Of a stretch of 64,000 bases of DNA, positions 4,044 through 30,694 are shown one piece after another (the first letter of the stretch is position 1; every line of letters begins with the position of its first letter). The notes below the pieces were generated by a model. That model did not search any database and was not told the DNA's origin. It worked only from the letters and a program-made list of their open reading frames with translations. A program made the translations under genes and the position numbers. This stretch comes from Arctopsyche grandis (lineage: Eukaryota > Arthropoda > Insecta > Trichoptera > Hydropsychidae): contig NC_135362.1 of the NCBI RefSeq assembly GCF_051622035.1, positions 19,554,501 to 19,618,500 of the forward strand. The letters run 5' to 3'.

Positions 4044-4098
<55 letters not shown>

Positions 4099-9228: not shown

Positions 9229-9927
9229 TTAATCCCTTCTCAGGTCGAAGGATTCTACCCGAACTCCATCCTTGGTTATGATGTTGATGCAAATGCTGTC
9301 GCCGGTGTAAATATCGCGCTCAGCCGCCGAGATAAACGCATCTTTGACAATGGCCAGAGCCTCGTCGCAAGTAACGGTGCGGCGAATAGTGGCGGCGTTC
9401 TTGAATTCCAGTTGATTGTCGAGCAGCGGCTGAAGCAAAGCCCCGGCCGAGCCGGCGGCCCGGAACGAAGAGCGCTCGAAGTTGCCGACGGGGTCGTAAC
9501 TGAAGACGCAGCCCCGGCCGTCGGCGTCCAGGCCGGCGAGCACCGGCGACACGTAGTAGGGGAAGAAGCGCTTGTGGTAGAGCATCGTGGAGAGCATCTG
9601 CGCGGCTGCAGTGGTGGGCATGGGCTTGCGGTGCTCGTGGCGATAGTGCGTGAGCCTCGCTCCCACCAGGCGCTGCAGAGTGAGCGCGTCGCACCAGCAG
9701 CCGGCGGTGGCCAGCACCGAGCATGACGTCAGCCGCACCAGCCGGTCTTGCGTGCGCGTCATCACCAGGTAGCTGCCGGACTGGCTGAGGCGCGTGTCTG
9801 CCGCCAGGATGGCGAAGTCTTCCCCCGACACGGCCACCACGCTTCCGCCGTTGTCCGCGTACGGGCTGAAGCCCCGTTGCGCGGCCAAATCCACATGCTC
9901 TTGCTGTTGAGGAATCACACCCAGCAT
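9229..9927 (-). CDS. Prosbeta6: Proteasome subunit beta type-1 (beta-6 position)
   Basis: A single exon of 232 residues from the ATG at 9927. An upstream in-frame extension to 9963 has only a TTG codon, so it was not used. The family signature is clear: RGFSPYADNGGSVVAVSGED, ILAADTRLS, MLSTMLYHKRFFPYYV, GLDADGRG, FSYDPVGNFER, LLQPLLDNQLEFKN, and KDAFISAAERDIYTGD near the C-terminus. This is one of the inactive beta subunits of the 20S core: no Gly-Thr precursor cleavage site with a catalytic Thr1 is present at the propeptide boundary (residues 18-24 read RGFSPYA). It is intronless and far more GC-rich than LTA4H, mRpL13 or PEX11, especially in third codon positions. It converges on PEX11. A retro-copy is possible but the frame is intact. 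Confidence 0.95.
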   Translation of the reverse strand: MLGVIPQQQEHVDLAAQRGFSPYADNGGSVVAVSGEDFAILAADTRLSQSGSYLVMTRTQDRLVRLTSCSVLATAGCWCDALTLQRLVGARLTHYRHEHRKPMPTTAAAQMLSTMLYHKRFFPYYVSPVLAGLDADGRGCVFSYDPVGNFERSSFRAAGSAGALLQPLLDNQLEFKNAATIRRTVTCDEALAIVKDAFISAAERDIYTGDSICINIITKDGVRVESFDLRRD

Positions 9928-11071
9928 CTTGGCAGCGACGAGAGCGGAGCCGGTTGCTGACAAACGTCAACTGGCGACGGCCTAGCACCGTATATGCCGG
10001 CCATGCTCTCTCACCGAAACACGCTAGTCATCGTAGTCATCGTTAGCATTTGAAATGTAATCGTCATAGAAGTAGAATGCATAGAATGGTCATTGTTAAC
10101 CAAAGTACCGTCTGAAAGTGAGCCATCGAAGAGAGAGACGAAGTTTGGCAAACAATGAACAAACTCTGCCGTGCAGAGTTTTTGTAGCAACATTTTTGGA
10201 GGCTGAGAGCGATTCTATGCATTCTACTTCTATGGTAATCGTACTTCGTTGGCGAGTTCAAAATGTCGATGAAACATTTTATTGAAATCTTGAAAAGTGG
10301 AATCTAGATTTACGTTACTTTATTTTCAAATGGGTAATGTAAATTTAATCTCCGTGCCTTATATTTTGATTTCGGCTCCGGCTTTGCAAATATATTATTT
10401 AGAAAATTGCGAATACGGAATATTTGGAACTCCTCGATCTTCATCAATCAAAAGCTACATAACGAGAACTCGAGTACAATTTTGGAGGCTGAGAGCGATT
10501 CTATGCATTCTACTTCTATGGCAATCGTACTTCGCTGGTGAGATCAAAATGTCGATGAAACGTTTTATTGAAATCTTGAAAAGTGGAATCTAGATTACTT
10601 TATTTTCAAATGGGTAATGTAGATTTAATCTCCGAGCCTTATATTTTGATTTCGGCTCCGGCTTTGCAAATATATTATTTAGAAAATTGCGAATACGGAA
10701 TATTTGGAACTCCTCGATCTTCATCAAACAAAAGCTACATAACGAGAACTCGAGTGCTAGATATTCCGTATTTGCGATTTTTGTTGCAACGATTATGTTG
10801 CGCGATTATATTTTGCGCAATATTTGTGGAGTATTTCTGACGGTGATTAGAGAGAATTACACAATATATGTAGGTACGTAAGAATTAAAATTGCAGTCAT
10901 GGTTTTTTACAATCCGTTATATTATTCGGACATTTTCAGGTCCAAATCGGGCCCCCACCTGCAGAAGTCTGATATTGTTCGATCCGAACTGTGACCGAGT
11001 GCAGCTTGCGGTCAGTGCGCTCTGTTCTACCAACTTGCAATATCTCAAGACGCGTTTTTCAGCTTTTCATT
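9928..11071. other. Upstream of the proteasome gene, with a 280-286 bp tandem duplication
   Basis: About 60 bp of GC-rich leader is followed by AT-rich sequence. Two direct copies of a roughly 280-286-bp unit lie at about 10195-10480 and 10481-10760. The markers GGCTGAGAGCGATTCTATGC (10201 and 10487) and AACGAGAACTCGAGT (10461 and 10741) recur in order. The second copy runs on into GATATTCCGTATTTGCGA sequence related to the GGTTCGGTG-family interior. Short open frames here are by-products of the duplication and look non-coding. Confidence 0.65.
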
Positions 11072-11853: not shown

Positions 11854-12292
11854 ATCTTTAATAAACGATACATATTTTGATAATTCATAGATTTTTAAGC
11901 TATTAACGTATATATAACTATAAAATATAAAAAAGTTTAAAAATCAATTCAACAATTTTTTTTAATAGTCAATGTTTATCTTGTAAAATAAGTATTTCAG
12001 TATGTAAAACATTTTTGTATTTCTGTTTTGAATAAGGTGTCCATAGTTTCCAAATTGAAAACCAGGAGATTTTACTAAAAAAAATTTTTTTTCTTCTTAA
12101 TACTTAATTATTTTTTCTAATACTAAAAAAATAATTTTCTTTAATGCTCTTATAAAATTCTACTCAGAACTGCTTAAAATTATTCTTATCGACTAGCAAA
12201 GATTTTAAAGTTTTAAATTTAATATTGCATTTTATCACCGGACCACATATTGTTCATTGGAAGATGCATATGTTTCTGGTGGTAATTGGATT

Positions 12293-12454
12293 TGTGGCGG
12301 CTCGCTTATACGACATGGTTGAGTTTGGTTGCCTTCCTGCGAGTGGGGACCAACCCGGCTGGGTTCGGAGAGCCACTACTCACTCTGTCTTCAGCTGTCA
12401 TATAATAAACACGTGCATTAACATGCCAGTCGTCTCATTCGTTCATCCTCCATA
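12293..12454 (+). mobile_element. Solo LTR of the 162-bp TRIM-like family
   Basis: The 162-bp segment runs from TGTGGCGGCTCGCTTATACG to CGTTCATCCTCCATA and equals the LTRs of the elements at 19861, 22569 and 28990 on the opposite strand. It is flanked by a perfect 4-bp duplication GATT (12289-12292 and 12455-12458). It contains ATAATAAACACG, a candidate poly(A) signal. Solo LTRs arise by recombination between the two LTRs of a full element, so this is evidence that the 162-bp unit is a true LTR. Confidence 0.92.
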
Positions 12455-12458
12455 GATT

Positions 12459-13897: not shown

Positions 13898-14223
13898 CAT
13901 AATTATGTTTTTTTACTATCAATCTATGTAACTTTATAAACTGTAAATTTTCCAAATAAATAAATATATTCAAACTCGGCGACAAAATACACCGAAATAG
14001 TTGGTAAAACGAGTCTTGAGATATTGCAAGTTGATGGAACGCTTGCGGCGTCGGGGTGTGGTCACACGGGACGTCGGACAGTGGTCGCATTGCGCGGCGT
14101 TTGGGCCTTCGGAGACTCGCGTTCGAGGCGCAGTGTCCGCCGCACGAGTGGTCGAGCGTCGGAGCGGCCAGTGCGTGGCTTCCGGCGAGAGGAGCGGCCG
14201 TCGACGGAGCTGTCGTCGACCCC
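13898..14223 (+). promoter_or_regulatory. Upstream region / leader of spenito
   Basis: The first ~85 bp are AT-rich. From about 14040 the GC content rises sharply. The reading frame of spenito is open upstream to 14056 but contains no ATG before 14224, so this part is taken as 5' UTR. Confidence 0.5.
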
Positions 14224-16584
14224 ATGCTGAGTTTGGGGCGAGCCGACCGGGACCGAGAGCGGGAGCGAGAGCGCGAGCGGGAACGGGAACGCGACCGCGA
14301 CCGGGAGCGAGACCGAGACCGCGAGCGCGAGCGGGAGCGCGACCGCGACCGCGACCGCATCACCGTCAAGATCCGCAACATGAAGCGCAGCGGGTCGCGC
14401 GACAGCGTCGTGCGCGTCAAGAGGGCGCGCAGCAGCGCCCCGCGCTACGACGACAGCTCCGACGGCGAGCGGCTGTCGGCCGAGCGCGCCCGCCGAGCCC
14501 GCCGCGGCGGCGGTTCGCCATCCCCCCCCCCGCAACCGCGCCGCTATTCGCCCCGCCGCGACGACTACGCCCCCGAGCGCCTGCGCACCCGCGACCCCCC
14601 CGACCGCCACTACGTCTACAAGGTGCTCTGCGTCAGCGCGCTGCACCCCAAGGTCTCCGACGACGCCATCAAGGACGCGCTCTACCGCGAGTACAAGAAG
14701 TTCGGCGAGCTCAGCGTCAAGGTCTCGCACGAGCTGGACGAGCGCGTCGCCTACGTCTGCTTCCGCAGCTCGGAGGACGCGCGCGACGCCAAGCACGCCA
14801 AGCCGCGCGTCGTGCTCTACGACAAGCTGGCCCTCGTCGAGCCCGTCTACGAGAGCGCCCGCACCGACTATCGCCGCGCTCGCAGCATCACTCCCGAGTA
14901 CGAGCGGTACGCGTGGTCGCCCCCCGCCGAGCGCCGCCGCCTGCCGCCCGAGGAGGTGCTCTTCGCCCTGCACGCCGCCTCCTCCGGCCCCGCTCCCCCC
15001 CACACCCACACGCACACTCACACCCACCCGCACCCGCACCCGCACCCGCACACCCACACCCACCGCGAGCTGCGCGACTACGCGCTGCCGCCGCCGCACC
15101 CGCACGCGCCTCCGCACCCGCACCCCCCCCTCCACCGCCCGATCCTGCACCCGCATGCGCATCCCCACCACCCGCACCCGCACTACCTGGCTCCCCGGGG
15201 CGCCTATGCTCCTCGCCCCCACCACCCGCACCCCACTCCCGAGAACAAGAAAGACAAGTTCCCCAACTACCTGCACCACGTGCAGCCGGAAGACGACCCT
15301 CTGGCCACGCGCACGCTCTTCGCCGGCAATCTGGAGATCAACATTTCCGACGAGGAACTGCGACGCATCTTCGGCCGCTTCGGGGTCGTCGAAGACGTGG
15401 ACATAAAGCGGCCTCCGCCCGGCACCGGAAACGCTTTCGCCTTCGTGCGCTATCAGACGTTAGACATGGCCCATCGGGCCAAGGTGGAGCTGTCCGGCCA
15501 ATACATTGGCAAGTTTCAGTGCAAGATCGGGTACGGAAAGGTAACTCCCACGACTCGGATTTGGGTCGGCGGACTCGGGCCGTGGACCTCGGTTCCCCAG
15601 TTGGAACGGGAGTTCGATCGATTCGGGGCCATTAAAAAGATCGAATACGTCAAGGGAGACACTAGCGGTTATATTCTGTACGATTCTATAGACGCGGCTC
15701 AAGCTGCCGTCAAGGAAATGAGGGGATTTCCTTTGGGCGGTGCCGATAAGAGATTGCGTATCGATTTTGCGGACGCTGCTCCCGGTGGGCCCGGGGCGCC
15801 TCCTCCGCATCCTTACAGCCGTCCGAGGGGCGGGGGCGAGCCCGAGCGAGATTACGATCCGCCGCCGTGGGACGAAGGGTATGCCGTGTCTTTGCGGCGA
15901 ACCCGACCCCGCGGTGTGAGACCCCGCGGCCCCGACGAAGAGTGGCGCCGTGGAGAGAGACGCTCCGGGTCCGGAGGATCTCCTCGCCGATCCGACTCCG
16001 ATTCGGACGAAGCCGAAGGACGCCGGGGGGGTGCACCCGCCGGCGTAGCCGCTCTGGCCGCCGCTCGCACTCTTCCCGAAGTAGCGCGCAAGTCGGACAC
16101 GAGTTGGTGTGGCGCTTTGATTCTAAAGAATTCACTGTTCCCGGCCAAGTTCCATCTCACGGACGGCGATCCGGATATAGTCGACGGGTTGATGCGAGAC
16201 GAAGACGGCAAACATCAACTGCGGATCACGCAAAGGCTGCGGCTGGATCAGCCCAAATTGGACGACGTGCAAAAACGCATTTCGACGTGTAGCTCTCACG
16301 CTATTTTCTTGGGACTGGCCGGATCTACGGCTTCCGTAGCGGGAGACGACTCGGGCATTCAAACTAGACCTCTGCGTAACCTCGTCTCTTATCTGAAGCA
16401 GAAGGAAGCCGCCGGAGTGATATCTCTGTTGAACAAAGAGACCGAAGCAACTGGCGTTTTGTATTCGTTCCCTCCGTGCGATTTCTCAACTGAACTGTTG
16501 AAAAGGACGTGTCACAATTTGACCGAAGAGAGCCTCAAAGACGATCATCTCGTGATCGTCGTCGTCAGGGGTGGAGCCGCTTAA
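14224..16584 (+). CDS. nito: Spenito / RBM15-family RNA-binding protein (RRM x3, SPOC)
   Basis: A single exon of 786 residues from the first in-frame ATG (14224); a second candidate start is the ATG of NMKRSGSRD at about 14380. The order is: Arg/Asp/Glu repeat (about residues 9-50), RRM1 (about 130-205, YKVLCVSALHPKV), a long His/Pro-rich linker (about 258-340), RRM2 (about 361-439, TRTLFAGNLEINI with RNP1-like NAFAFVRY), RRM3 (about 444-519, TRIWVGGLGPW), an acidic/basic linker and a C-terminal SPOC domain (about 616-786, WCGALILKNSLFPAKFHL). Proteins of this family recruit the m6A methyltransferase complex to RNA and, in flies, act in sex determination, splicing and Wnt signalling. The order and length match fly Nito (about 790 residues). 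The 5' two-thirds is extremely GC-rich and falls towards the 3' end. Long open frames on the other strand and in other frames are by-products of this composition. Confidence 0.95.
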   Translation: MLSLGRADRDRERERERERERERDRDRERDRDRERERERDRDRDRITVKIRNMKRSGSRDSVVRVKRARSSAPRYDDSSDGERLSAERARRARRGGGSPSPPPQPRRYSPRRDDYAPERLRTRDPPDRHYVYKVLCVSALHPKVSDDAIKDALYREYKKFGELSVKVSHELDERVAYVCFRSSEDARDAKHAKPRVVLYDKLALVEPVYESARTDYRRARSITPEYERYAWSPPAERRRLPPEEVLFALHAASSGPAPPHTHTHTHTHPHPHPHPHTHTHRELRDYALPPPHPHAPPHPHPPLHRPILHPHAHPHHPHPHYLAPRGAYAPRPHHPHPTPENKKDKFPNYLHHVQPEDDPLATRTLFAGNLEINISDEELRRIFGRFGVVEDVDIKRPPPGTGNAFAFVRYQTLDMAHRAKVELSGQYIGKFQCKIGYGKVTPTTRIWVGGLGPWTSVPQLEREFDRFGAIKKIEYVKGDTSGYILYDSIDAAQAAVKEMRGFPLGGADKRLRIDFADAAPGGPGAPPPHPYSRPRGGGEPERDYDPPPWDEGYAVSLRRTRPRGVRPRGPDEEWRRGERRSGSGGSPRRSDSDSDEAEGRRGGAPAGVAALAAARTLPEVARKSDTSWCGALILKNSLFPAKFHLTDGDPDIVDGLMRDEDGKHQLRITQRLRLDQPKLDDVQKRISTCSSHAIFLGLAGSTASVAGDDSGIQTRPLRNLVSYLKQKEAAGVISLLNKETEATGVLYSFPPCDFSTELLKRTCHNLTEESLKDDHLVIVVVRGGAA
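14240..14360 (+). repeat. RE/RD codon repeat in spenito
   Basis: Alternating CGN-GAN codons encode an Arg/Glu/Asp tract of about 40 residues. Imperfect hexamer repetition makes the region open in several frames. Confidence 0.85.
14998..15230 (+). repeat. His/Pro-rich low-complexity tract in spenito
   Basis: CAC-CC and CAC-AC dinucleotide-codon repeats encode HTHTHTHPHPHP-type sequence between RRM1 and RRM2. It probably evolves by slippage and is not expected to be conserved. Confidence 0.85.
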
Positions 16585-19360: not shown

Positions 19361-19690
19361 ATGCGCTTAAAGTATGGAACACTGTGATCATGGCATAGCG
19401 AGGAGAAATAGAGAACGGAATACGTGGGTGAGAAATATGACGAGGGAAGTGGATATTGTGGAGAAAAGGAAGAAATTGAAACTGCAATGGTTGGGTCACG
19501 TAGCTAGAAAAATAGACGAAATTAGTTCTAGAATTATGCCCAAGAAATTGTAAAAGGGTGAAAAGAAGGCCGCAAGGAAAATCGGTAGATGAAATTAGGA
19601 AAATGTATGGGGTGAGATCGGGGCTGCTCTAAGGGGTGATTTGAGAAAACTAACAGTGATTAAAGGAAAAAAAATATATCGACAGCTTCT
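19361..19690 (+). pseudogene. LINE reverse-transcriptase C-terminal remnant
   Basis: The frame ARRNRERNTWVRNM continues through VEKRKKLKLQWLGHVARK, the well-known tail segment after the reverse transcriptase of insect non-LTR elements. It is followed by a stop and by out-of-frame homologous sequence (GGTGAGATCGGGGCTGCTCT). It is dead, with neither a start nor a catalytic domain. Confidence 0.65.
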
Positions 19691-19860
19691 GTTAAACAAA
19701 AACGTCGCAAAAGTACGTTTCGTGTGGAAAAAAAAGCAGCGATGGCAGAAATTTTATGCACATTGTATACACGTTCAATAACTAATATTAGATAACAATT
19801 AAAAGTAAAATTAAATTGTCAATAATTTAAGTCTATTGAGTTACATCAGTTAATAGGTAT

Positions 19861-20936
19861 TATGGAGGATGAACGAATGAGACGACTGGCATGTTAATGC
19901 ACGTGTTTATTATATGACAGCTGAAGACAGAGTGAGTAGCAGCTCTCCGAACCCAGCCGGGTTGGTCCCCACTCGCAGGAAGGCAACCAAACTCGACCAT
20001 GTCGTATAAGCGAGCCGCCACATCACTCCCCCCCCAGCATCAGCGATACCAAAATTACAAAGAAACAAATTTTACAAAAGAAAAAAATTATTGTTACACA
20101 AAGAGAAAAATTATTACGTGGGGAGAAAAAAAATTGTTGACGTGGGTCATCCGCGGTGTACATAGGTGTACCGCCCTGAATGGTCGGTAGATTCGAGGGC
20201 GGTGACGTCGCGAGCAGGACGGTGGCTGGTCCGATGGTCGCGCGATGCGATGCTGCGGCGGTGCCGCTCTTCCGAGGCTGATGTCGGTTGGTGGGGCGGC
20301 GGGGGCGGCAGGGGCATCGATGTGGTTGATGATACTCCGAGCTGGACTGTGAGTCGTTGTGGCTCGTGGAGGTGTTGTAGCGCTACCGCCCGTCTCGGCG
20401 TGACGACGCTCGTGGGGACGGACGGGGCCTTGATGATGATGATGGTGCTGAGGTGGTGTATGTCTTGTGGTGCTGGATGACCGTTCTATGTGTAGTGGAT
20501 CGCGCATGACTCCACATCCAGCTGTCAAGATCGTCGTCTCATTCGCTCCCCCATTTTTTAAAGCACCTGTCATCGACGTTGGCTGGACGTCGGTAGGTAG
20601 GTAGGTAGGTAGGTAGCCGTGTCTGCTCGTTTATTGTCACCCGCGGGCCGCGACGCGCTCTGTTGATGGCGATGGGGGCGCGGCGGGTAGCTTCCCGCCT
20701 GGCTCGGCGAGGCAGGGATGAGCGGCATGTTGAAATTGATCGAGGCTGCGTGGCTCGATGTCGGGGGTCACCAGTATGGAGGATGAACGAATGAGACGAC
20801 TGGCATGTTAATGCACGTGTTTATTATATGACAGCTGAAGACAGAGTGAGTAGCAGCTCTCCGAACCCAGCCGGGTTGGTCCCCACTCGCAGGAAGGCAA
20901 CCAAACTCGACCATGTCGTATAAGCGAGCCGCCACA
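19861..20936 (-). mobile_element. TRIM-like LTR miniature, copy 1 (1076 bp)
   Basis: Two identical 162-bp LTRs (19861-20022 and 20775-20936) flank a 752-bp GC-rich interior. The 4-bp duplication GTAT is at 19857-19860 and 20937-20940. Read on the minus strand, each LTR starts TGTGGCGGCTCG and ends CATCCTCCATA, with AATAAA inside. The 5' LTR is followed by CTGGTGACCCCCGACAT (primer-site-like). A purine tract GGGGGGGAGTGA stands directly before the 3' LTR. No gag, protease or reverse transcriptase is encoded. Identical LTRs imply a recent insertion. It shows LTR-specific variants (AGCAGCTCTCC, CCGGGTTGGTCCCC) shared by both ends, as expected when LTRs are copied from one template. Confidence 0.93.
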
Positions 20937-20969
20937 GTATATTACTTTAAGATATAATATAAATATAAC

Positions 20970-21140
20970 CAGCCTGGTTAAACCAGGGCTTTTTTTTTTG
21001 AGAAAAAGGTGCCGAAACTCACTTGTCAAGTTTTTTATTGAAAAAGATTATGTTCAATATTCGTTTGAAACATAAAAAATGCTAAGACAAAAGGGTGCCG
21101 GAACGCCGTTCCAACGCGTTAGATGGGAAAAAAAGCCCTG
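20970..21140. mobile_element. hAT-like MITE, 171 bp
   Basis: Perfect 8-bp duplication AATATAAC (20962-20969 and 21141-21148). The right end is AAAAAAAGCCCTG. The left end starts CAGCCTGGTTAAACCAGGGC, in which CAGGGCTTTTT repeats the right end 14 bp further in, so the left terminus may have a small duplication. CAGGG ends with 8-bp duplication are typical of hAT. Confidence 0.7.
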
Positions 21141-21227
21141 AATATAACTACGAAAGGCTTCAATTTTGAATAATAAGGTAAAATGTTCGAAATAGATCGT
21201 ATAGGAGGCGCACAAAATATCCCGATT

Positions 21228-21228
<1 letters not shown>

Positions 21229-21291
<63 letters not shown>
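21229..21291. repeat. (TA)n microsatellite
   Basis: An uninterrupted run of about 30 TA dinucleotides ending in ATGCATATAA. Confidence 0.95.
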
Positions 21292-21295
<4 letters not shown>

Positions 21296-21329
21296 TATAA
21301 ATTTATATCTGATGATACGCGGGGTGAAC

Positions 21330-21505
21330 AACAATGTTTGTTTTTTTTTTTTTTTTGGAGGAAGGGGGGGGGGGCGCAAATTTTGGATTTGCACCCGAGC
21401 GCCAACTACCCTTAGAGCGGCCCTGGGTGAGATGGATGAGAGCTGCGCTAAACAGAGACGTGTTGGAGAGGCCTTCATCCAGCAGAGGATGATGATAAGA
21501 TGTTA
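21330..21505 (+). mobile_element. hAT-like right end joined to a LINE 3' end
   Basis: Up to 21424 the sequence ends ...GCCAACTACCCTTAGAGCGGCCCTG, a hAT-type terminus (CAGGGCCGC on the other strand) with no left partner seen. It is followed by GAGATGGATGAGAGCTGCGC...GTGTTGGAGAGGCCTTCATC, which matches the LINE tail at about 50290-50400, ending in GATGATGAT repeats. It is probably an insertion into a LINE followed by deletion. Confidence 0.5.
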
Positions 21506-22564
21506 AACGTGTTTTTTTATAAGCCTTTTCTATACTTCACTTGGATCTTTAGGCAGTGCGGGAATAAGTGGTATGTTGACCGTGTCCCACCGCCTATAGG
21601 AACACGCGATTGTGTTTGTTTGGAAGGTGATCTTTATTGGCTCATCAATATTACATTATATGTAACGAAGTAGAAGTATATGTAACGAAGTTGTTTCGTC
21701 GGAGTGAACTATGGTCAAGCTCCCAAAGTTCACTGGCGTTAGTTGCTGATCCACCGGTGCATCTGTTTCAGTTGGACATGTGATCGTGGTGTGTTAAGAT
21801 TATTTTCCGCTTGAATAGAAGTGCATTCCAGAGGGGTATGGTATGGAGTATGCGAGTGTATTGATAACGATAAGGGATAGTACGCGATGTGCTATATTCT
21901 TACAGCTCTTTCGTCTGACAACATTTTGGGTTTGATATCCTACATTCTACCGATCGTTCTCAAACTTTGCCATTTTTTTACAACAATAACTGAAATACAC
22001 ATATATCAAAATATATACAGCACAAAGTTAAGTGTGCGGATTTTATTTAAAGCAAAAATCTTGATGAATTAGCAAAAAAATGTAGTTAATGTTTATGTTG
22101 ATTAAAGAGGTTTGAAGTTGCTGATATTGCAAATACACTGAAATATCAATATACATGTGATGTATTGCCGATTTAGCTAATATTATTTGCAATGAACTGC
22201 GATTATTAAGTACCGCAAGGTTTAAACATGTTCAATTCTGAATCGGCGAGATAATGATGTAGGGTACGACAGTAAAATTACGGGAGGTTTAATGCAAGAC
22301 TGATTTATTTGAAGAGCGGGAAGGAAATGTTGTGAGAATGGTGATCAAATAAATGCACCCAAGAGAGCCGTGCTCTCGAGACATCCTAATTTTCAAAGGT
22401 GCTCAAGATGAACTTACGAAATAGAATTCCATCAAAAAACATCAAGGGGTATTTGTATGTTATCCAAAGGTGTAGGAAACCGTCGGAACATGATTGAACC
22501 TATTCTAACATTCATGATTACAGCCCAAGTCTGTTGCAGTACCTGTACAATGGAATAAATGATA
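21506..22564. other. Spacer, no gene recognised
   Basis: Moderately AT-rich sequence. A GTATATGTAACGAAGT repeat lies near 21655-21690. No open frame with family resemblance. Confidence 0.4.
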
Positions 22565-22568
22565 ATGT

Positions 22569-23649
22569 TATGGAGGATGAACGAATGAGACGACTGGCAT
22601 GTTAATGCACGTGTTTATTATATGACAGCTGAAGACAGAGTGAGTAGTGGCTCTCCGAACCCAGCCGAGTTGGTTCCCACTCGCAGGAAGGCAACCAAAC
22701 TCGACCATGTCGTATAAGCGAGCCGCCACATCACTCCCCCCCCAGCATCAGCGATACCAAAATTACAAAGAAACAAATTTTACAATAGAAAAAAAATTAT
22801 TGTTACACAAAGAGAAAAAAATATTACGTGGGGAGAAAAAAAATTGTTGACGTGGGTCATCCGCTGTGTACATAGGTGTACCGCCCTGAATGGTCGGTAG
22901 ATTCGAGGGCGGTGACGTCGCGAGCAGGACGGTGGCTGGTCCGATGGTCGCGCCGATGCGATGCTGCGCCGGCGCCGCTTTTCCGAGGCTGATGTCGGTT
23001 GGTGGGGCGGCGGGGGCGGCAGGGGCATCGATGTGGTTGATGATACTCCGAGCTGGACCGTGAGTCGTTGTGGCTCGTGGAGGTGTTGTAGCGCTACCGC
23101 CCGTCTCGGCGTGACGACGCTCGTGGGGACGGACGGGGCCTTGATGATGATGATGATGATGGTGCTGAGGTGGTGTATGTCTTGTGGTGCTGGATGACCG
23201 TTCTATGTGTAGTGGATCGCGCATGACTCCACATCCAGCTGTCAAGATCGTCGTCTCATTCGCTCCCCCATTTTTTTAAGCACCTGTCATCGACGTTGTG
23301 GCTGGACTCCAGTCGGTAGGTAGGTAGCCGTGTCTGCTCGTTTATTGTCACCCGCGGGCCGCGACGTGCTGTGTTGATGGCGATGGGGGCGCGGCGGGTA
23401 GCTTTTCCCGCCTGGCTCGGCGAGGCAGGGATGAGCGGCATGTTGAAATTGATCGAGGCTGCGTGGCTCGATGTCGGGGGTCACCAGTATGGAGGATGAA
23501 CGAATGAGACGACTGGCATGTTAATGCACGTGTTTATTATATGACAGCTGAAGACAGAGTGAGTAGTGGCTCTCCGAACCCAGCCGAGTTGGTTCCCACT
23601 CGCAGGAAGGCAACCAAACTCGACCATGTCGTATAAGCGAGCCGCCACA
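22569..23649 (-). mobile_element. TRIM-like LTR miniature, copy 2 (1081 bp)
   Basis: LTRs at 22569-22730 and 23488-23649 are identical to each other. The 4-bp duplication ATGT is at 22565-22568 and 23650-23653. The interior is nearly identical to copy 3 (28990-30071) and differs from copy 1 by small indels that shift reading frames (for example at about 22953) and by a longer CAT run (seven histidine codons against five on the minus strand). A frame starting MRDPLHIERSSST on the minus strand is open in copies 2 and 3, but is changed by frameshift in copy 1, so coding function is doubtful. Confidence 0.93.
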
Positions 23650-23890
23650 ATGTGTTCAAAATTCGTAAATAATAACGTGGTACGAAAACAATAAGTCTTT
23701 TTGAAATTCAATTGCTTTTAGGCAATTAATAAACTGCAAAGTACACTGGCCAACTTGGCGTTTTTTCCATCTATTTCGGTTTTAAAAACGTGAGTTTATA
23801 TTTCATTTAAGTGTTATGTTATATTAATATTAATATTTAGAATTGTAAAAATGCAGAATATTCCAATTTTGAACATCTGTATTTTGAAAC

Positions 23891-24068
23891 GGTTCGGTGA
23901 TTACTAGTCAAATATGAACCGGTCACAGGACAACCGGTCGCTCTAGATCGGTCACACGTGATCACCCGTCACACTATAACTGGTCACGAGAAAACTGGTC
24001 ACACCCTAAAACTGGTCACACCCAAAAGTTAAAAATCAGTCGAATTATATGACTAGTAGTCGTTTACC
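23891..24068. mobile_element. MITE of the GGTTCGGTG family (GGTCAC subtype) near the Seh1 promoter
   Basis: It starts GGTTCGGTGATTACTAGTCA and ends GACTAGTAGTCGTTTACC. The flanking 9-mers TTTTGAAAC (23882-23890) and TTTTGACAC (24069-24077) match 8 of 9. The ACTGGTCAC units are present three times. It ends 209 bp before the Seh1 start codon, so it could contribute to the promoter. Confidence 0.8.
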
Positions 24069-24077
24069 TTTTGACAC

Positions 24078-24277
24078 GCACCTTATGAATATAAAATAAG
24101 TAGGTTGGCAGCAGCGAATGACGCGACGATTCCGAAGTTGTTTAGGCCACATACGTCAAATAGGTTAGGTCGGTTTACGGTTGTAAAAGAGGAGCGCGGC
24201 AATTGCTTTATTTCATTTAGTGAGTGAGTAATCTAGTTTCCTTTAGTGTGGGGCCTTCAGGGCTCCCTCGCAAGGAT
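24078..24277 (+). promoter_or_regulatory. Seh1 proximal upstream region
   Basis: This 200-bp region lies between the MITE and the start codon. It contains TTAGGCCACATACG and GTTAGGTCGGTTTACGG, is less AT-rich than its surroundings, and probably includes the 5' UTR. No TATA box was seen. Confidence 0.45.
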
Positions 24278-25830
24278 ATGGAGGCTCTCTCGTTAGCAGC
24301 GGAGCACCGAGATCTTGTGCACGATGTGGCGTATGATTTCTATGGAGAACGCATGGCTACATGCTCCAGCGATCAGTTTGTGAAGGTCCATATTTGATTA
24401 ATTTGTACAATTTTCATTTTTCCAAGTTTAGATGATTATATTTTTCATTTAACAAATTTTGCACAATAATTATTAATAACTCTGTATTTTGTGTAGGTAT
24501 GGGATAAGGAGTTAGAAGGAAAATGGCGTCCATCAGCCAGTTGGAAAGCTCACAGTGGTTCCGTTTGGAAAGTAACGTGGGCTCATCCAGAGTTTGGTCA
24601 AGTTTTAGCCACTTGTTCGTTTGACAGAACAGCTGCTGTTTGGGAAGAAGCCGGTTTGTTGTTTTGCATACTAAAGTTTTCCAGTCATATTAATGATATT
24701 CTAAAGTATAAATTAACTATTGGTTGAAAAAAATTTAGGAGACATCGGAGGAACTGGGGAAAAAGGTGGAAAACAGTGGTTGAGACGTGTAAGTCTTGTA
24801 GATTCTCGTACTTCCGTTACCGATATTAAGTTTGGCCCTAAAACTCTTGGCCTATATCTAGCAACTTGCTCTGCTGATGGAATAATAAGGTAATACATTC
24901 GTTTTTAAAAACATTATAAACTTGAATGGAACCTTTACATTTCGATGTATTTATAGGATATACGAAGCACCGGATGTTATGAATCTCGCTCAATGGACTC
25001 TGCAGCATGAAATCCCAACTAAAGTGACCCTTAGTTGCCTTTCATGGAATCCATCTCTATCGAGGTTTGGAAAAATATTAATATTGTAAAAATAATTATT
25101 GCAATTGTATTTGTTAATTCTAATTTTAATTAAAGGGCTCACCCACCTATGGTGGCGGCTGGTAGTGATGATGGAGGCCGTGTAATTTTACTGGAATATA
25201 GTGAAGCCGCTCGAAGGTGGGCACGAATTGAGCCAACAGGAGCTTGGCCCGTTTCGAGCGATCCCATACATGATATAGCTTTTGCGCCTAATCTTGGACG
25301 TTCGTATCATTTATTAGCGGTTGCATCTAATCAAGTGCGAATTTTATCATTAAGACCTTTACCGTAAGTAAAATATACAATGTCAAAGTACGTATGTACA
25401 TTTTAATTAAAAGTGGAAATATTCAAATGTAAGTGCTTATAATCTTTAGTGAAGGAGGCGGCCGGTATACAGTTGAAGTGGTTGCTAATATGGATCAACA
25501 CGGAGCACCCGCCTGGCGAGTTTGTTGGAATGTAACCGGTACACTGCTTGCATCATCTGGAGACGATGCCACAATACGACTATGGAAGAGTAGGTTTCAA
25601 CGTCTATACACTTTTTTTTTAGTTTCATGTTTGTTTTTAATTTTACAATTTGTTTTCGCACAGTGCAATATCAACGTCAGTGGGTTTGCGTAAGCGTTTT
25701 GCGTGGTGACAGTATCGGAGCGTCACAGGTTATTGGTGGTCTACCCTCTTTGCCTCATGTACCGTCGACGAATGCCCGATATTATAAACTTGGAAGTATA
25801 ACAAATTCGAATCAGGTTCCTTGGCATTGA
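24278..25830 (+). CDS. Nup44A: Nucleoporin Seh1 (WD40 protein, Nup107-160 and SEACAT/GATOR2)
   Basis: Seven exons (24278-24385, 24497-24653, 24739-24889, 24957-25064, 25136-25363, 25450-25589 and 25664-25830) give 352 residues, close to the fly protein. Introns are 63-111 bp with GT..AG ends. Family signatures in order: [114 protein letters not shown], and [20 protein letters not shown]. These form the WD40 blades of the Seh1 propeller. The protein sits in the nuclear-pore Y complex and in the GATOR2 arm of amino-acid signalling to TORC1. The C-terminal extension is short and low-complexity. Confidence 0.96.
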
Positions 25831-26480
25831 AGGAGTTTTACGAAGTTTTATTTTATACTCTGATTTGTAAAAACTACATATTTTATAATTTGTCTTTATT
25901 AAAATGATATTTTTCAATATTGACTTTTTTTAATTAACTCCAAAATTTTAATAAGATTCAAGTTACTGTAATTTTGATTGTTGTTAAATACCTATTTATA
26001 ATACTAAGAAGTTTAGAATGCTATGGAAACATTCTTTCAGTTGATTCTTCAATGGATTGCCACAGCACGAGGCAAAGCACAACATGAGCAAGCTACTGCA
26101 GACTATAATTAAATCTGAAAGTGCATTATATAAAAAAAAATTGAATGAGAAAAATTATGTATGTACATATGTATATTTCAAACCACAACGAGACATTTTG
26201 ACTTGGGTATGCATGGCTCAAATTTGTAATTCAACATGTTGGAATAAGTTTGGCATGTTTTGCCATTGGCATAATAATTATTTACCGTTAATTTTCACCG
26301 ATTGCGCAGATATATGGTTGAATAATTACCCAGGAGCATTGATTAATATAGACAACATTCGGAAATGGAAATAGAAGGATAGAATTGGCAAGAAATTCCT
26401 TCAGTAGCATGAAAAGTGTTTTGTGTTTCTGAAGGGTGTCTATTAAATTACATTTATGATTTCTGCGTTGCTATGTATGG
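25831..26480. other. Seh1 3' region and spacer
   Basis: ATTAAA near 25898 could be the poly(A) signal. A 105-residue open frame at 26057-26374 begins ATGCCACAGCACGAG-like sequence on a weak codon. It has no family match by eye and adjoins LINE remnant sequence, so it is not called a gene. Confidence 0.45.
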
Positions 26481-27200
26481 TCAGTGTTGCTTTATGAATA
26501 CGAAACATGGACACTGTTAGTGGGAAGCTTGAATAAGACAGAGTGTTACCGGCAGGGCTGCCGAGAGGAATCCCAGGGTCTGGGAAAAAATAATTCCAGG
26601 GCCTATGACAAACTAAAAAAATAGATCTTATAAATATATTTTTTATATATGAAAAATCTATTGAAACTATAAGAAAAATACCTTGTATGTCAGTTGTTAT
26701 TTTTAAAAATAATTGAATAAGAAAGTATGATATGTATGTATAACAGGTACGATTTCACGTGGCCACAAGAATGCATGGATCAAAAAATAATAAACATTTA
26801 TGTAGAATTAAATAAAAACATGTATTTTTATGTAGAATAATATAAAATATCAATATCGGTCAGTCGGATGTCCCGACACGGGACCCCTTTAGTAGTCCGG
26901 GCGCTGGAACTTAACCCCGGCTCCCCTCCCCCTCTCGGCAGCCCTGGTTACCGGAGGATGTAAAATATCTCATGGAAGGAATATGTGGAGAACGAAACTG
27001 ACCTGCTGCTTCACAAAAAGAGACAGCTTGATAGCTTGATATCGCCTTCTACAGACAATAGTGGAAAGAAAAGTAGAGGGAAAACGGAAAACTCGGAACA
27101 TCAGATCATGGATGGGATACTGACTCTTGTATCAGTTTGCTTAAAATAGGACAGAATCTCAACAATAATGCTTGCCCATGGTAGTAGGAAATGAAGAAGA
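26481..27200 (+). pseudogene. LINE reverse-transcriptase remnant split by a hAT-like MITE
   Basis: Before the insertion the frame reads SVLLYEYETWTLLVGSLNKT. After it, the same frame resumes with CYRRM, a stop, then ISWKEYVENETDLLL and, in another frame, LLQTIVERKVEGKRKTRNIR. These are the C-terminal region of insect non-LTR elements. The break is exactly at the MITE at 26553-26946, whose target duplication is GTTACCGG. Confidence 0.75.
26553..26946. mobile_element. hAT-like MITE, 394 bp
   Basis: The ends are CAGGGCTGCCGAGAGG and its complement CCTCTCGGCAGCCCTG. The perfect 8-bp duplication GTTACCGG is at 26545-26552 and 26947-26954. The interior is AT-rich with a GC-rich right shoulder (ACACGGGACCCC...CCCCCTCTCGG). 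No coding sequence. Confidence 0.92.
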
Positions 27201-27768
27201 TTGTAATATTTTTAATCCATTAAAATGAATTAAAAACATAATTTTAAAAGATAGATTTTATTAGAACTGTTATGATTGACATGTCACAGATGTATTTACA
27301 TATGTATATATTCAAGAATTTTAGCATTATCTTTCAGTTTAGTTTTGCTACTTCAAATATTATTCATATATGTATGTATGATACAAATGTAGATTTCTAA
27401 TCGCTTCTATGAAGAACATTCGATTGTTCAAAGTGAACTTGTGCATTGCTTCATATTGCACTAGTTGGCTTGAATAGTATTTATCCATCACATTTTTTCT
27501 GAAAATTTAAAACCTTTCTAGCCATTCATTAAACTTTTCTTTTTTTTTATAAACATTTCTCCACATGAAGCTAACATCATTATATAATTTTAATTCAATT
27601 CACAGTATCAAAATTTGATAACACTTGTAATGTAGTGAATATCTTACAACCTATGTATGTACTTATATTACTCTTTATTCCCGCTTATTGTTTGATCTTG
27701 ATTCCTTGAGCGCACGCTTAATTGATATTTTCTTTTAAAGTTATTTATGAGACTTTCAAAATCTTTAT

Positions 27769-28215
27769 TGCTTTAGCTAAATTTTTCTCACGAATTGTGC
27801 TTCCCTCAAATATCATCATTCCTCTTAATCTGCACAACGAATTGTGTGTATCTACCCAACCATTTCTCGATACACTCAAGGGATACATATGCAAACACTA
27901 AATCTTAAAATATTGTTTTTAATTAATTTTATGGCTTTGCTACATTTTTCTCACGAATTGTGTTTCCCTCAAATATTATTATCCCTCTTAAATCTGCATG
28001 ACTAATTGTGTGTATCTACGAAACCATTTCTCGATACTAGAGACCGGAATCTGAAGGGGCTGTTTATTGTTCAAAGATTGTAAATGTATTGTTAAAGGTT
28101 TGCCGAACCTTTTTTACAAAGGATTTACAACAATGGAACAATAGGCGGCGCGATTCCGGCCCCTTCAGATTCCGGCCTCTACTCGATACACTCAAGGGAT
28201 ACATATGTCAAATAC
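27769..28215. repeat. About 160-bp tandem duplication; second copy holds a MITE
   Basis: Copy 1 is about 27769-27916 and copy 2 about 27931-28215. Shared blocks include TTTTTCTCACGAATTGTG, ATTGTGTGTATCTAC and CTCGATACACTCAAGGGATA. Copy 2 is interrupted at CTCGATAC by the 144-bp element at 28038-28181, while copy 1 is the intact empty site. Confidence 0.85.
28038..28181. mobile_element. hAT-like MITE, 144 bp
   Basis: The ends are TAGAGACCGGAATCTGAAGG and CCTTCAGATTCCGGCCTCTA. The perfect 8-bp duplication CTCGATAC is at 28030-28037 and 28182-28189. The neighbouring tandem copy of the host sequence shows the unoccupied site with a single CTCGATAC. Confidence 0.93.
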
Positions 28216-28248
28216 TAAAACTATCTTACACATGCATGGCACTGTTAA

Positions 28249-28723
28249 GAGGGCTGGACACCAGCGCCTTGTCCATACAAACGTATTACACTTCTCCCTT
28301 CCTCAATTATGTCACTAGAGAAATTATTTTTTAATATGCTATGGATATACACCATTGGGTTGCATCTAACGTTTTATTTTTTTGATTAGTTAATTTTTAT
28401 AGGAGCTAGGAGCCGCCAAACATCAATAAAATCGCCTCTTTTTTACACCCACGAAAATAATCCAGCGTGCTTATTTAACGGTCGATTTAAAAAAAAATAC
28501 GCGCATAGTTGCACAGAAAATATCTTTCTCATACCGATGATGAAATTTTTTTAAAAATTGGTACAGTTTCGGAGGAGAAAATAGGATAATACGAAACCTT
28601 GATTTTGTCAATTTAAAATACGTTTTATCTGGTCGAACCGCAACTTTCGCATTCACTCAATATATACATATATATCGAAGAAAGGAACGGCAACAAAATT
28701 AAGGCTTCGGGTGTACAGCCCTC
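28249..28723. mobile_element. TTAA-flanked MITE, 475 bp (piggyBac-like target)
   Basis: TTAA is at 28245-28248 and 28724-28727. The ends are GAGGGCTGGACACC and, from the right, GAGGGCTGTACACC. The TTAA site suggests piggyBac or another TTAA-targeting superfamily; the GAGGG terminus differs from the CCC termini of the other two piggyBac-like elements here. No coding sequence. Confidence 0.75.
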
Positions 28724-28989
28724 TTAATCACCAGTTGTTTTACCAAACTGTGATTGGTCGAAATTGTTACCCTTATTGAATATATGCTCATGTTAAACAT
28801 TTTGAAGACCACTTGCGATTAAACAGCGTAACTAGTAACTTGTGGTGGCACTTTGAGACTAGTAACTTGTAATACAAACTTGTACATTAATCTCGTGAAT
28901 ACTTACTGCTATTTAAAGAATATAACAATCTAATAAAATCTGTGACTATAACATTTTTACACCATCTCTTACTCGTCCCCGTAACACAC

Positions 28990-30071
28990 TATGGAGGATG
29001 GACGAATGAGACGACTGGCATGTTAATGCACGTGTTTATTATATGACAGCTAAAGGCAGAGTGAGTAGTGGCTCTCCGAACCCAGCCGAGTTGGTTCCCA
29101 CTCGCAGGAAGGCAACCAAACTCGACCATGTCGTATAAGCGAGCCACCACATCACTCCCCCCCCCAGCATCAGCGATACCAAAATTACAAAGAAACAAAT
29201 TTTACAATAGAAAAAAAATTATTGTTACACAAAGAGAAAAAAATATTACGTGGGGAGAAAAAAAATTGTTGACGTGGGTCATCCGCTGTGTACATAGGTG
29301 TACCGCCCTGAATGGTCGGTAGATTCGAGGGCGGTGACGTCGCGAGCAGGACGGTGGCTGGTCCGATGGTCGCGCCGATGCGATGCTGCGCCGGCGCCGC
29401 TTTTCCGAGGCTGATGTCGGTTGGTGGGGCGGCGGGGGCGGCAGGGGCATCGATGTGGTTGATGATACTCCGAGCTGGACCGTGAGTCGTTGTGGCTCGT
29501 GGAGGTGTTGTAGCGCTACCGCCCGTCTCGGCGTGACGACGCTCGTGGGGACGGACGGGGCCTTGATGATGATGATGATGATGGTGCTGAGGTGGTGTAT
29601 GTCTTGTGGTGCTGGATGACCGTTCTATGTGTAGTGGATCGCGCATGACTCCACATCCAGCTGTCAAGATCGTCGTCTCATTCGCTCCCCCATTTTTTTA
29701 AGCACCTGTCATCGACGTTGTGGCTGGACTCCAGTCGGTAGGTAGGTAGCCGTGTCTGCTCGTTTATTGTCACCCGCGGGCCGCGACGTGCTGTGTTGAT
29801 GGCGATGGGGGCGCGGCGGGTAGCTTTTCCCGCCTGGCTCGGCGAGGCAGGGATGAGCGGCATGTTGAAATTGATCGAGGCTGCGTGGCTCGATGTCGGG
29901 GGTCACCAGTATGGAGGATGAACGAATGAGACGACTGGCATGTTAATGCACGTGTTTATTATATGACAGCTAAAGGCAGAGTGAGTAGTGGCTGTCCGAA
30001 CCCAGCCGAGTTGGTTCCCACTCACAGGAAGGCAACCAAACTCGACCATGTCGTATAAGCGAGCCGCCACA
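28990..30071 (-). mobile_element. TRIM-like LTR miniature, copy 3 (1082 bp)
   Basis: LTRs at 28990-29151 and 29910-30071, with duplication ACAC at 28986-28989 and 30072-30075. The two LTRs share the diagnostic CTAAAGGCAG variant yet differ from each other at about four positions (for example GAGGATGGACG/GAGGATGAACG and GCCACCACA/GCCGCCACA), so this copy is older than copies 1 and 2. The interior is almost the same as copy 2. Confidence 0.93.
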
Positions 30072-30262
30072 ACACTATTGTATTTTTTTGGAATTCGTAC
30101 TAAATTGTTACACCGAAATTGTTTTTATTATTGATGTACCTTTGAGTTGTTGTACTACCATCGAGTTGTTAACAGAAGCAAAGCATATGATAAAAGAATG
30201 TTTATAGCCAGTAACTCATTATAATAAATTCACATTTCAGTATTCACTAAGGCTGGTCGGGG

Positions 30263-30694
30263 TGTTCAGTAGTTGTAACGGATACTCGCCGACTTCAGGA
30301 CAAAGAATCAGACGAGCCGTTGTTAATGCGGCGGTGGTGTGATGAGTTCGGGCCATTGATAAGGTCCATTATGAATAGCGGGTCAACCGGAAGAGGGTGA
30401 CGTGACCGATGCGGGCTTCGGCTGCCCCGTCACATCGCACCTGATTTATGTGGATCTTCGGCCGCGCGGCAACAAATCTGCTACCGACGCCACAAATTAT
30501 CGCCCTCGACCGACCAGATATATTGCCACGACGCTCTGACACCCCACATCCCCTACACCCCCTACAAACTAACCCCTACAGTATCAACCCCCCCAACCCG
30601 ATGAAAAAGACTGTTTTTAATTTCGACGCTTTCGCGTCTGCATCCTGTTTCAGTGTATAATAAAACCTCTTCTTAACGGATTCATATAACAGTA
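30263..30694 (+). mobile_element. Possible solo LTR of another family (432 bp)
   Basis: A GC-rich island that begins TGTTCAGTAGTTGTAACGG, carries AATAAA near its right end (about 30658) and ends ATATAACAGTA, flanked by GGGG on both sides (30259-30262 and 30695-30698). The layout resembles a solo LTR with TG...TA ends and a 4-bp duplication, but GGGG is a weak duplication and no second copy is present in the window. Confidence 0.45.

What the first reader, a model, noticed from the sequence alone, without database searches (positions are those of the whole stretch)
19861..30071. A family of about 1.08-kb LTR miniatures (TRIM-like) with three full copies and a solo LTR
Three elements (19861-20936, 22569-23649, 28990-30071) share 162-bp LTRs, a primer-site-like CTGGTGACCCCCGAC just inside one LTR and a purine tract GGGGGGGAGTGA just before the other. 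Each has a perfect 4-bp target duplication (GTAT, ATGT, ACAC). None encodes gag or pol. Paired LTRs in each copy share private variants, the mark of reverse transcription from one template, so an autonomous partner elsewhere must supply enzymes. All are in the same orientation. Copies 1 and 2 have identical LTRs, so activity looks recent.
Basis: partly seen in the sequence, partly recalled or inferred. Interest (0 to 1): 0.8.

Follow-up and report, generated by a model that had tools for sequence, protein, structure and literature searches.

The report
Tiny retrotransposon family with identified helper
Three short gene-less jumping elements in this genome belong to a family of several hundred copies, and natural hybrids with a much rarer gene-carrying element show which element most likely supplies the enzymes that move them.

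Summary
Three 1.08-kb elements lie on the minus strand, with 162-bp LTRs (TGTGGC...CTCCATA), PBS, PPT, distinct perfect 4-bp TSDs, unrelated flanks and no detectable gag/pol; a solo LTR lies at 12293-12454. The 475.7-Mb genome has 395 LTR-PBS junctions and 1,427 LTR-core sites of this family, with 0 in reversed-pattern controls.

It shares LTR ends, a 10-nt PBS, the PPT region and 4-bp TSDs with the miniatures, but little else.

Four natural miniature/helper hybrids were examined; each has matching outer TSDs (ATGT, ATAT, AGGT, ACAC). Two carry a miniature LTR at the 5' end and a helper LTR at the 3' end. The simplest reading is that both RNAs were reverse-transcribed together and one integrase complex joined a miniature end and a helper end.

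The family is a new member of a known kind (TRIM-like; 1.08 kb exceeds the strict <1 kb TRIM limit). The hybrid evidence is the valuable part. The primer looks like tRNA-Trp, but the host tRNA-Trp gene was not located.

The parts
19861..20022 (-). copy 1, 3' LTR (162 bp)
20023..20035 (-). copy 1, polypurine tract (GGGGGGGGAGTGA)
20023..20774 (-). copy 1, interior (752 bp, no coding domain found, GC 0.57)
20764..20773 (-). copy 1, primer-binding site TGGTGACCCC (10 nt shared with helper)
20775..20936 (-). copy 1, 5' LTR (162 bp, identical to its 3' LTR)
19857..19860 (.). copy 1 TSD, GTAT (other copy 20937-20940)
22569..22730 (-). copy 2, 3' LTR
22731..23487 (-). copy 2, interior (757 bp) with PPT at the low end and PBS at 23477-23486
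23488..23649 (-). copy 2, 5' LTR (identical to its 3' LTR)
22565..22568 (.). copy 2 TSD, ATGT (other copy 23650-23653)
28990..29151 (-). copy 3, 3' LTR
29152..29909 (-). copy 3, interior (758 bp; equals copy 2 except poly-G length), PBS at 29899-29908
29910..30071 (-). copy 3, 5' LTR (4 of 162 sites differ from its 3' LTR)
28986..28989 (.). copy 3 TSD, ACAC (other copy 30072-30075)
12293..12454 (+). solo LTR of the same family, TSD GATT on both sides (12289-12292, 12455-12458)

Best explanation
The three elements are independent insertions of a TRIM-like non-autonomous LTR retrotransposon. Shown: LTR/PBS/PPT/TSD anatomy, several hundred copies, no detectable coding domain, a Ty3/gypsy element of CsRn1 type in the same genome with the same terminal recognition sequences, and hybrid integrants of the two. 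Inferred: the miniature RNA is transcribed from its LTR (AATAAA signal at LTR 112-117) and packaged by the helper's Gag, primed by tRNA-Trp at a 10-nt PBS, reverse transcribed by the helper RT-RNaseH from the shared PPT, and inserted by the helper integrase, which reads TGTGGC.../...CTCCATA and makes a 4-bp stagger. In hybrids with a miniature LTR at one end and a helper LTR at the other, miniature plus-strand strong-stop DNA probably transferred onto a helper-derived minus strand in the same particle.
For: Anatomy. Copy number: 395 LTR-PBS junctions and 1,427 LTR-core sites, controls 0. No Pfam hit at E<=1 in the longest interior ORF of each of the three copies. Helper: 40 LTR matches scored of 42 candidates, 12 pairs spanning 5.2-5.4 kb. 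L066: LTR pair identical, TSD CTCT, gag CHCC and integrase GPF motifs; Pfam DUF7041, RVP, RVT_1, RNase H, Integrase_H2C2 and rve, searched in five pieces; nearest solved RT is that of Ty3. In 9 of 9 further pairs checked the TSD is 4 bp and the PBS is ACTGGTGACCCC; three of the nine share TSD GAAC, and their printed flanks look like one duplicated insertion. Shared ends: first 6 and last 7 LTR bases; 22 of 30 bases before the 3' LTR identical, shuffles 9.4 on average with maximum 19 in 5,000, best other of 4,860 helper windows 15; 30 was the most telling of four lengths tried (20, 30, 40, 60). Hybrids with matching TSDs, 4 of 4 examined: C13:18702959-18706613 ATGT; C1:30512801-30518263 ATAT; C1:39439752-39441162 AGGT; C1:5384098-5385585 ACAC. 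Chance that two random TSDs match, from 22 miniature TSDs: 0.017.
Against: No expression, particle or live mobilisation data. The host tRNA-Trp gene was not found, so the primer name rests on a recalled metazoan tRNA-Trp and on papers about the lineage. The spacer before the PBS is C in the ordinary miniatures but AC in the helper. LTR bodies and interiors show no clear similarity; over the last 20 and 60 bases before the 3' LTR the identity (13, 29) does not exceed the shuffle maximum (16, 31). Other families with a tRNA-Trp-type PBS exist in the genome and could also act as helpers. Hybrids B-D were found by looking only on contig C1, so there is no genome-wide rate and no count of hybrids with other families. 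Of 9 odd junctions, one (L017, inside L018) holds helper sequence.
Confidence: 0.86

Rival explanations
1. A different, closer gag-pol family, still unfound, is the real helper; the 5.29-kb element is only one of several families whose RNA occasionally enters the same particles.
For: Other families with a tRNA-Trp-type PBS exist: 109 sites of TGGTGACCCCGACGTG (this count includes some aberrant miniatures). Some of the first 30 loci have ATG-led GC-rich sequence soon after the PBS (L037, L044, L047-L049, L059, by eye), and L047-L049 show 71-72% similarity to 209 bases of the helper interior. LTR bodies of miniature and helper are unrelated.
Against: A pattern search for the miniature LTR end plus PBS followed by a different interior gave 9 sites; only L017 holds helper sequence. 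What follows the PBS in L010 was not identified. All four hybrids examined involve this one helper family, but they were found by looking for it.
Confidence: 0.2
2. The hybrids arose by recombination between genomic copies after integration, so they say nothing about shared particles.
For: The two elements share an LTR/PBS junction of about 18 bp and about 30 bp before the 3' LTR where DNA recombination could start.
Against: 4 of 4 hybrids examined have identical 4-bp repeats on the two outer sides; ectopic exchange would join unrelated flanks (random match 0.017 each). The two LTRs of hybrid A are identical, and so are those of hybrid D over the 136 bases compared, sharing variants absent from copy 2. 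Hybrid B's inner junction has only about 4 bases (AAAA) in common (by eye).
Confidence: 0.08
3. The three window copies are segmental or tandem duplicates of one insertion.
For: Same orientation and within 10.2 kb.
Against: Different TSDs, unrelated flanks, and 4 of 162 LTR differences between copies 1 and 2.
Confidence: 0.01
4. The family is a Helenus-type element with a tRNA-derived pol III promoter in its LTR.
For: A loose box A (LTR 24-36, TGGTCGAGTTTGG) followed by GGTTC at 70-74; the loose pattern was met in 1 of 3,000 dinucleotide shuffles. Animal Helenus also has 4-bp TSDs and Gypsy partners, one using tRNA-Trp (PMC10886601, Results read).
Against: The loose pattern was chosen after seeing the sequence; the stricter pattern fails. 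Rfam gives no tRNA match at E<=10 to the two LTRs searched; ARAGORN finds none in the window.
Confidence: 0.07

Closest known systems
PbTRIM (harvester ant TRIM; PMC3532108, abstract, Results part 1 and Discussion part 1 read)
   Same: LTRs of 152-184 bp, 4-bp TSDs, AT-rich targets, non-coding interior, clusters, many solo LTRs
   Different: Elements 480-781 bp; PBS for tRNA-Leu; no autonomous element found
ta-TRIM and its candidate helper lennie (Echinococcus; PMC4558846, section on the candidate helper and passages read)
   Same: Helper inferred from shared LTR start, PBS and 4-bp TSD
   Different: The section read reports no hybrids, and no intact lennie copy was found in E. multilocularis; here one examined helper copy has open frames and four hybrids were found
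CsRn1 lineage of Ty3/gypsy (PwRn1 PMC2582038; CsRn1_Cv1 PMC3630058; passages read)
   Same: tRNA-Trp PBS, CHCC Gag motif, GPY-type integrase motif, 4-bp TSD typical; CsRn1_Cv1 has LTRs of 179-180 bp
   Different: These are the autonomous kind; the miniature has none of the genes. The helper's PBS matches tRNA-Trp over only 10 nt
Helenus (TRIMs with tRNA-like LTRs; PMC10886601, Results read)
   Same: Small LTR elements, 4-bp TSDs in animals, Gypsy partner inferred from PBS; up to 1,263 bp long
   Different: No recognisable tRNA in the LTR here
Plant TRIMs with putative autonomous relatives (PMC4717578, passages read)
   Same: Tandem arrays and autonomous relatives reported for a few families
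   Different: There the link is sequence similarity to a longer element (for one family, in both LTR and interior); here it is terminal signals plus hybrid integrants

Membership tests
TRIM | Two direct terminal repeats of 100-250 bp | tested here: met
   162 bp; definition from PMC6934838 passage
TRIM | Total length under 1000 bp | tested here: not met
   1076-1082 bp in the window; PMC10886601 counts elements up to 1263 bp as TRIMs. Hence filed as TRIM-like
TRIM | PBS after the 5' LTR and PPT before the 3' LTR | tested here: met
TRIM | No coding capacity | tested here: met
   No Pfam match at E<=1 for the longest ORF of each copy; indels of 1 and 2 bases between copies 1 and 2
TRIM | TSD, retrotransposed copies | tested here: met
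   18 of 21 distinct complete copies in window plus L001-L065 have perfect 4-bp TSDs; two of the other three form a tandem array with ATTT on both outer sides, and one (L027) has unmatched flanks
TRIM | Mobilised in trans | tested here: inconclusive
   Hybrids imply a shared particle and integrase; not shown by experiment
CsRn1 lineage (the helper) | PR-RT-RH-IN order, Ty3/gypsy type | tested here: met
   pieces in order; nearest solved RT is Ty3
CsRn1 lineage (the helper) | CHCC Gag motif | tested here: met
   CRFHQRYGNRSHRCEPPC in the one copy examined
CsRn1 lineage (the helper) | GPY-type motif in integrase | tested here: met
   GPF in QPPYQGPFEVV; F instead of Y
CsRn1 lineage (the helper) | PBS complementary to tRNA-Trp | tested here: inconclusive
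   10-nt match to the tRNA-Trp-type end; host gene not found
CsRn1 lineage (the helper) | 4-bp TSD | tested here: met
   10 of 10 pairs examined, of 12 seen
CsRn1 lineage (the helper) | Placement in a pol tree | not tested
Helenus | tRNA-derived sequence in the LTR | tested here: not met

The most novel reading that the evidence does not exclude
The miniature is a hyperabundant parasite (395 LTR-PBS junctions against 12 helper LTR pairs seen) whose RNA is routinely copackaged with one CsRn1-type helper. The genome preserves that act as hybrid integrants in which one intasome joined a miniature U3 end to a helper U5 end, and as aberrant copies keeping 15 to 29 nt copied from the tRNA primer, which record failed or intermolecular second-strand transfers. 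If so, natural hybrids are a general way to find the helper of a TRIM by computation.
Probability: 0.65. Interest if true: 0.65.

Novelty: new member of a known kind. Interest (0 to 1): 0.57.

Why it matters
In the papers read, helpers of animal TRIMs were guessed from a few shared features or not found: PbTRIM none, bivalve TRIM none, ta-TRIM only a candidate, Helenus by PBS similarity. Hybrid integrants with matching TSDs turn the guess into a physical link between parasite and helper, and the same search can be run on any assembled genome.

Tried and rejected
Segmental duplication: rejected by flanks and TSDs. Hidden coding capacity of the interior: an ORF of about 170 aa is open in copies 2 and 3, but copy 1 differs by indels and none matches Pfam at E<=1. 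Small RNA in the elements: Rfam at E<=1 over 19500-30400 gave only a simple-repeat miRNA artefact between copies 1 and 2, and at E<=10 sub-threshold noise on two LTRs. Host tRNA-Trp gene: an exact 25-mer hit only the aberrant copy L014; a 21-mer with <=2 mismatches hit 15 places, of which the four cut out as loci hold no tRNA by ARAGORN, and L087/L088 read as PBS-bearing repeats; the anticodon-arm pattern hit nothing; a recalled tRNA-Trp query hit only a repeat locus on C12, best match 39 nt at 97%. The helper gag search and the helper LTR-PBS count did not complete, so helper copy number rests. Host species not determined. In one search the script listed 22 'complete copies'; one (L029 2946-4038) is the space between two neighbouring copies and is dropped from the counts here.
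Full report
OBSERVATION. Their sense strand is the minus strand of the window. Each has two 162-bp LTRs that begin TGTGGC (TGTGGT in copy 3's 3' LTR) and end CTCCATA, a PBS (C + TGGTGACCCC) directly inside the 5' LTR, a polypurine tract ending GAGTGA directly before the 3' LTR, and a perfect 4-bp target duplication: GTAT, ATGT and ACAC on the + strand. The 800-bp flanks of the three copies gave only short chance-level matches to each other. A solo LTR at 12293-12454 (+) has TSD GATT. Within copies 1 and 2 the LTR pairs are identical; copy 3's pair differs at 4 of 162 sites. The interiors (752, 757 and 758 bp; GC 0.57 against 0.36 for the window) have no Pfam match at E<=1 in their longest open frames, and the stretch 19500-30400 has no Rfam match at E<=1 inside the elements.

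GENOME-WIDE. The window lies in a held genome of 475.7 Mb in 189 contigs. A 25-mer across the LTR/PBS junction, with up to 3 mismatches, occurs 395 times, and 0 times as the reversed control. A 28-mer from the LTR occurs 1,427 times, control 0. If every junction marks a two-LTR element, roughly 640 LTRs are solo or in partial copies; this is an inference from the two counts. Among window plus L001-L065 I found 21 distinct complete copies (the script printed 22; one is the gap between two neighbours). Of these, 18 have perfect 4-bp TSDs, and of those 18, 14 have identical LTR pairs, two have 1 difference, one has 2 and one (copy 3) has 4. These copies were found as best matches or exact junctions, so they lean young. 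Of the other three, two form the array in L004/L032, LTR-interior-LTR-interior-LTR with ATTT on both outer sides, and one in L027 has unmatched flanks. Twenty-two TSDs (18 copies plus four solo LTRs) are 70% A+T. Insertions cluster: among the 81 exact junctions listed on contigs C1-C3, 5 neighbouring pairs lie within 10 kb against 0.54 expected at random (4 of 20,000 simulations reach it; one search also tried 5, 50, 100 and 200 kb, P 0.00015 to 0.011). The tool lists only the first 100 of 395 sites, so the test uses 81 of 395.

THE HELPER. I searched for miniature LTR ends plus PBS followed by anything but the miniature interior. Nine sites came back. One (L017) ran from a miniature LTR and PBS into a frame that starts with ATG. 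The surrounding locus L018 also carried the end of a different LTR, TGTGGCAACC...CTCCATA. That LTR has 42 candidate sites in the genome, 40 scored, with 12 pairs spanning 5.2-5.4 kb. The copy examined (L066, C13:3745030-3750400) has 201-bp identical LTRs, TSD CTCT, length 5,292 bp, and open frames of 353 and 1,054 codons stop to stop. Pfam on five separate pieces gives DUF7041 (Gag), RVP, RVT_1, RT_RNaseH, Integrase_H2C2 and rve, in Ty3/gypsy order. The closest solved RTs are those of Ty3. The Gag has the CHCC motif and the integrase a GPF motif. Nine more LTR pairs were checked at their ends: 9 of 9 have a 4-bp TSD, the PBS ACTGGTGACCCC and the PPT AAGGGGGGAGTAT; LTR differences are 0 in seven, 1 in one, 2 in one. 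Three of the nine share TSD GAAC, and their printed flanks look like one duplicated insertion. Passages of two papers give tRNA-Trp PBS and CHCC Gag, and one of them also GPY integrase and 4-bp TSD, as marks of the CsRn1 lineage (PMC2582038, PMC3630058). No pol tree was made.

WHAT THE TWO SHARE. The first 6 and last 7 LTR bases, the 10-nt PBS, the PPT, and 22 of the last 30 bases before the 3' LTR (TGGTATCGC...GGGGGGAGT); for that length 5,000 shuffles never exceeded 19 and the best other helper window reached 15 of 30. Four lengths were tried: over 40 bases the excess is slight (22 against a shuffle maximum of 21), and over 20 and 60 bases it stays below the shuffle maximum. Beyond that, LTR bodies and interiors have only chance-level matches. 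So the miniature keeps little but the signals an RT and an integrase read.

HYBRIDS. A came from the search. B, C and D were found by noticing that helper LTR sites lie close to miniature LTR sites on contig C1, the only contig compared in full. On C1 there are 7 helper LTR rows at 6 places: three proved to be hybrids, one is a full helper 117 bp from a miniature LTR, one (20251538) lies 3.2 kb from a miniature LTR and was not fetched, and one (24285821) has no miniature near. The four hybrids examined each have the same 4 bases on the two outer sides. (A) C13:18702959-18706613, TSD ATGT: miniature LTR, PBS, helper leader and part of gag, helper 3' region with a foreign 1.1-kb stretch inside, helper 3' LTR, miniature interior, miniature LTR; the two miniature LTRs are identical. 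(B) C1:30512801-30518263, TSD ATAT: miniature LTR, PBS and first 215 interior bases, a junction with about 4 shared bases, then helper sequence at 98.8% identity over the 1,815 bases read, and a helper 3' LTR; the stretch between the two fetched ends was not read. (C) C1:39439752-39441162, TSD AGGT: miniature LTR and PBS, a short repeated miniature piece, then the helper 3' part and helper LTR. (D) C1:5384098-5385585, TSD ACAC: miniature LTR, a 15-nt tRNA-Trp-like copy, an inverted helper LTR and 3' end, and a second miniature LTR identical to the first over the 136 bases compared; its middle was not fetched. From 22 miniature TSDs, two random ones match with probability 0.017, so matching flanks on 4 of 4 are not expected from exchange between genomic copies. 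Hybrids B and C have a miniature LTR at the 5' end and a helper LTR at the 3' end. Normal reverse transcription gives two like LTRs. Transfer of miniature plus-strand strong-stop DNA onto a minus strand that began on helper RNA gives exactly this arrangement (inference from the textbook mechanism). In either case one integration event used a miniature U3 end and a helper U5 end.

PRIMER. Three distinct events (L011; L012/L013; L050-L055, the last two groups apparently duplicates of single events) carry TGGTGACCCCGACGTGAT after the miniature LTR, exactly 18 nt in the three loci tested. One (L014/L021) carries 29 nt that fit a recalled metazoan tRNA-Trp, and hybrid D carries 15. Ordinary copies and the helper match for 10 nt only. 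In L011, L012, L014 and L050 the copy is joined to an abnormal place: an inverted interior, an inverted LTR, the mid interior, or the PPT. I read these as plus-strand strong-stop DNAs that kept the tRNA copy because second transfer went wrong. [quoted passage not shown] The host tRNA-Trp gene was not located; a recalled tRNA-Trp query found only a PBS-type repeat on C12, best match 39 nt at 97%.

HOW IT WORKS, AND LIMITS. Best reading: TRIM-like parasite, helper in trans, copackaging, shared integrase. Shown: anatomy, numbers, the helper's genes in one copy, shared signals, hybrids. Inferred: packaging by helper Gag, the tRNA-Trp primer, the strand-transfer route. Not shown: present activity. 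Zero differences in 162 bp still allows about 1.8% divergence (rule of three), so the age is loosely bounded.

NOVELTY. Literature searches (listings, plus the sections and passages cited) listed no animal TRIM with helper hybrids by title or abstract start; most listed papers were not opened. Wheat papers discuss template switching in autonomous/non-autonomous pairs (PMC11302176, PMC9744471; passages). The family is a new member of a known kind; the hybrid evidence is the useful addition.

Noticed in passing
LTR positions 24-36 and 70-74 (e.g. window 23488-23649, minus strand): A loose pol III box A and a GGTTC box-B-like motif at tRNA-like spacing; the loose pattern was met in 1 of 3,000 dinucleotide shuffles, but it was chosen after seeing the sequence and Rfam finds no tRNA.
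   Followed up: partly
window 28990-30071 versus 22569-23649: Copy 3's LTRs differ from each other at 4 of 162 sites and from copy 2 at two shared sites, yet the interiors of copies 2 and 3 are identical over about 757 bp apart from poly-G length. Mosaic origin or gene conversion is possible.
   Followed up: partly
L022 near 3792-4192 and L023 3753-4289: Two palindromic integrants with miniature LTR starts (U3 ends) at both outer sides, both flanked by AAGC and both followed by AAGCTAT; two U3 ends integrated together, at similar targets.
   Followed up: partly
L050-L055: Near-minimal elements: miniature LTR, AC, 18-nt tRNA-Trp-like copy, poly-G PPT, LTR start; six loci (all on C2, 39.10-39.45 Mb) with the same layout and the same upstream bases in the three printed (L050, L051, L055), apparently one event duplicated.
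   Followed up: partly
e.g. L036, L038, L040, L043, L057, L061, L062, L063, L065: Other repeats with canonical TGGTGACCCCGACGTG and a further TGGTGACCCC within the next 100 bases or so; probably other LTR-element families with a tRNA-Trp-type PBS.
   Followed up: no
L018, about 7022-8128: A foreign stretch of about 1.1 kb inside the helper part of hybrid A, at a point where helper positions 4692-4695 are repeated, as for an insertion with a 4-bp duplication.
   Followed up: no
C1:36526891-36527052 and helper from C1:36527170; C9:1307000-1307035: Miniature LTRs next to full helper copies: 117 bp between them on C1, and a miniature LTR end 4 bp from the helper on C9; both families may favour the same targets.
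   Followed up: no
window 9229-9966 (-), 14035-16584 (+): Open frames that look from recall like a proteasome beta subunit and a spenito/RBM15-type RNA-binding protein; not tested by any search.
   Followed up: no
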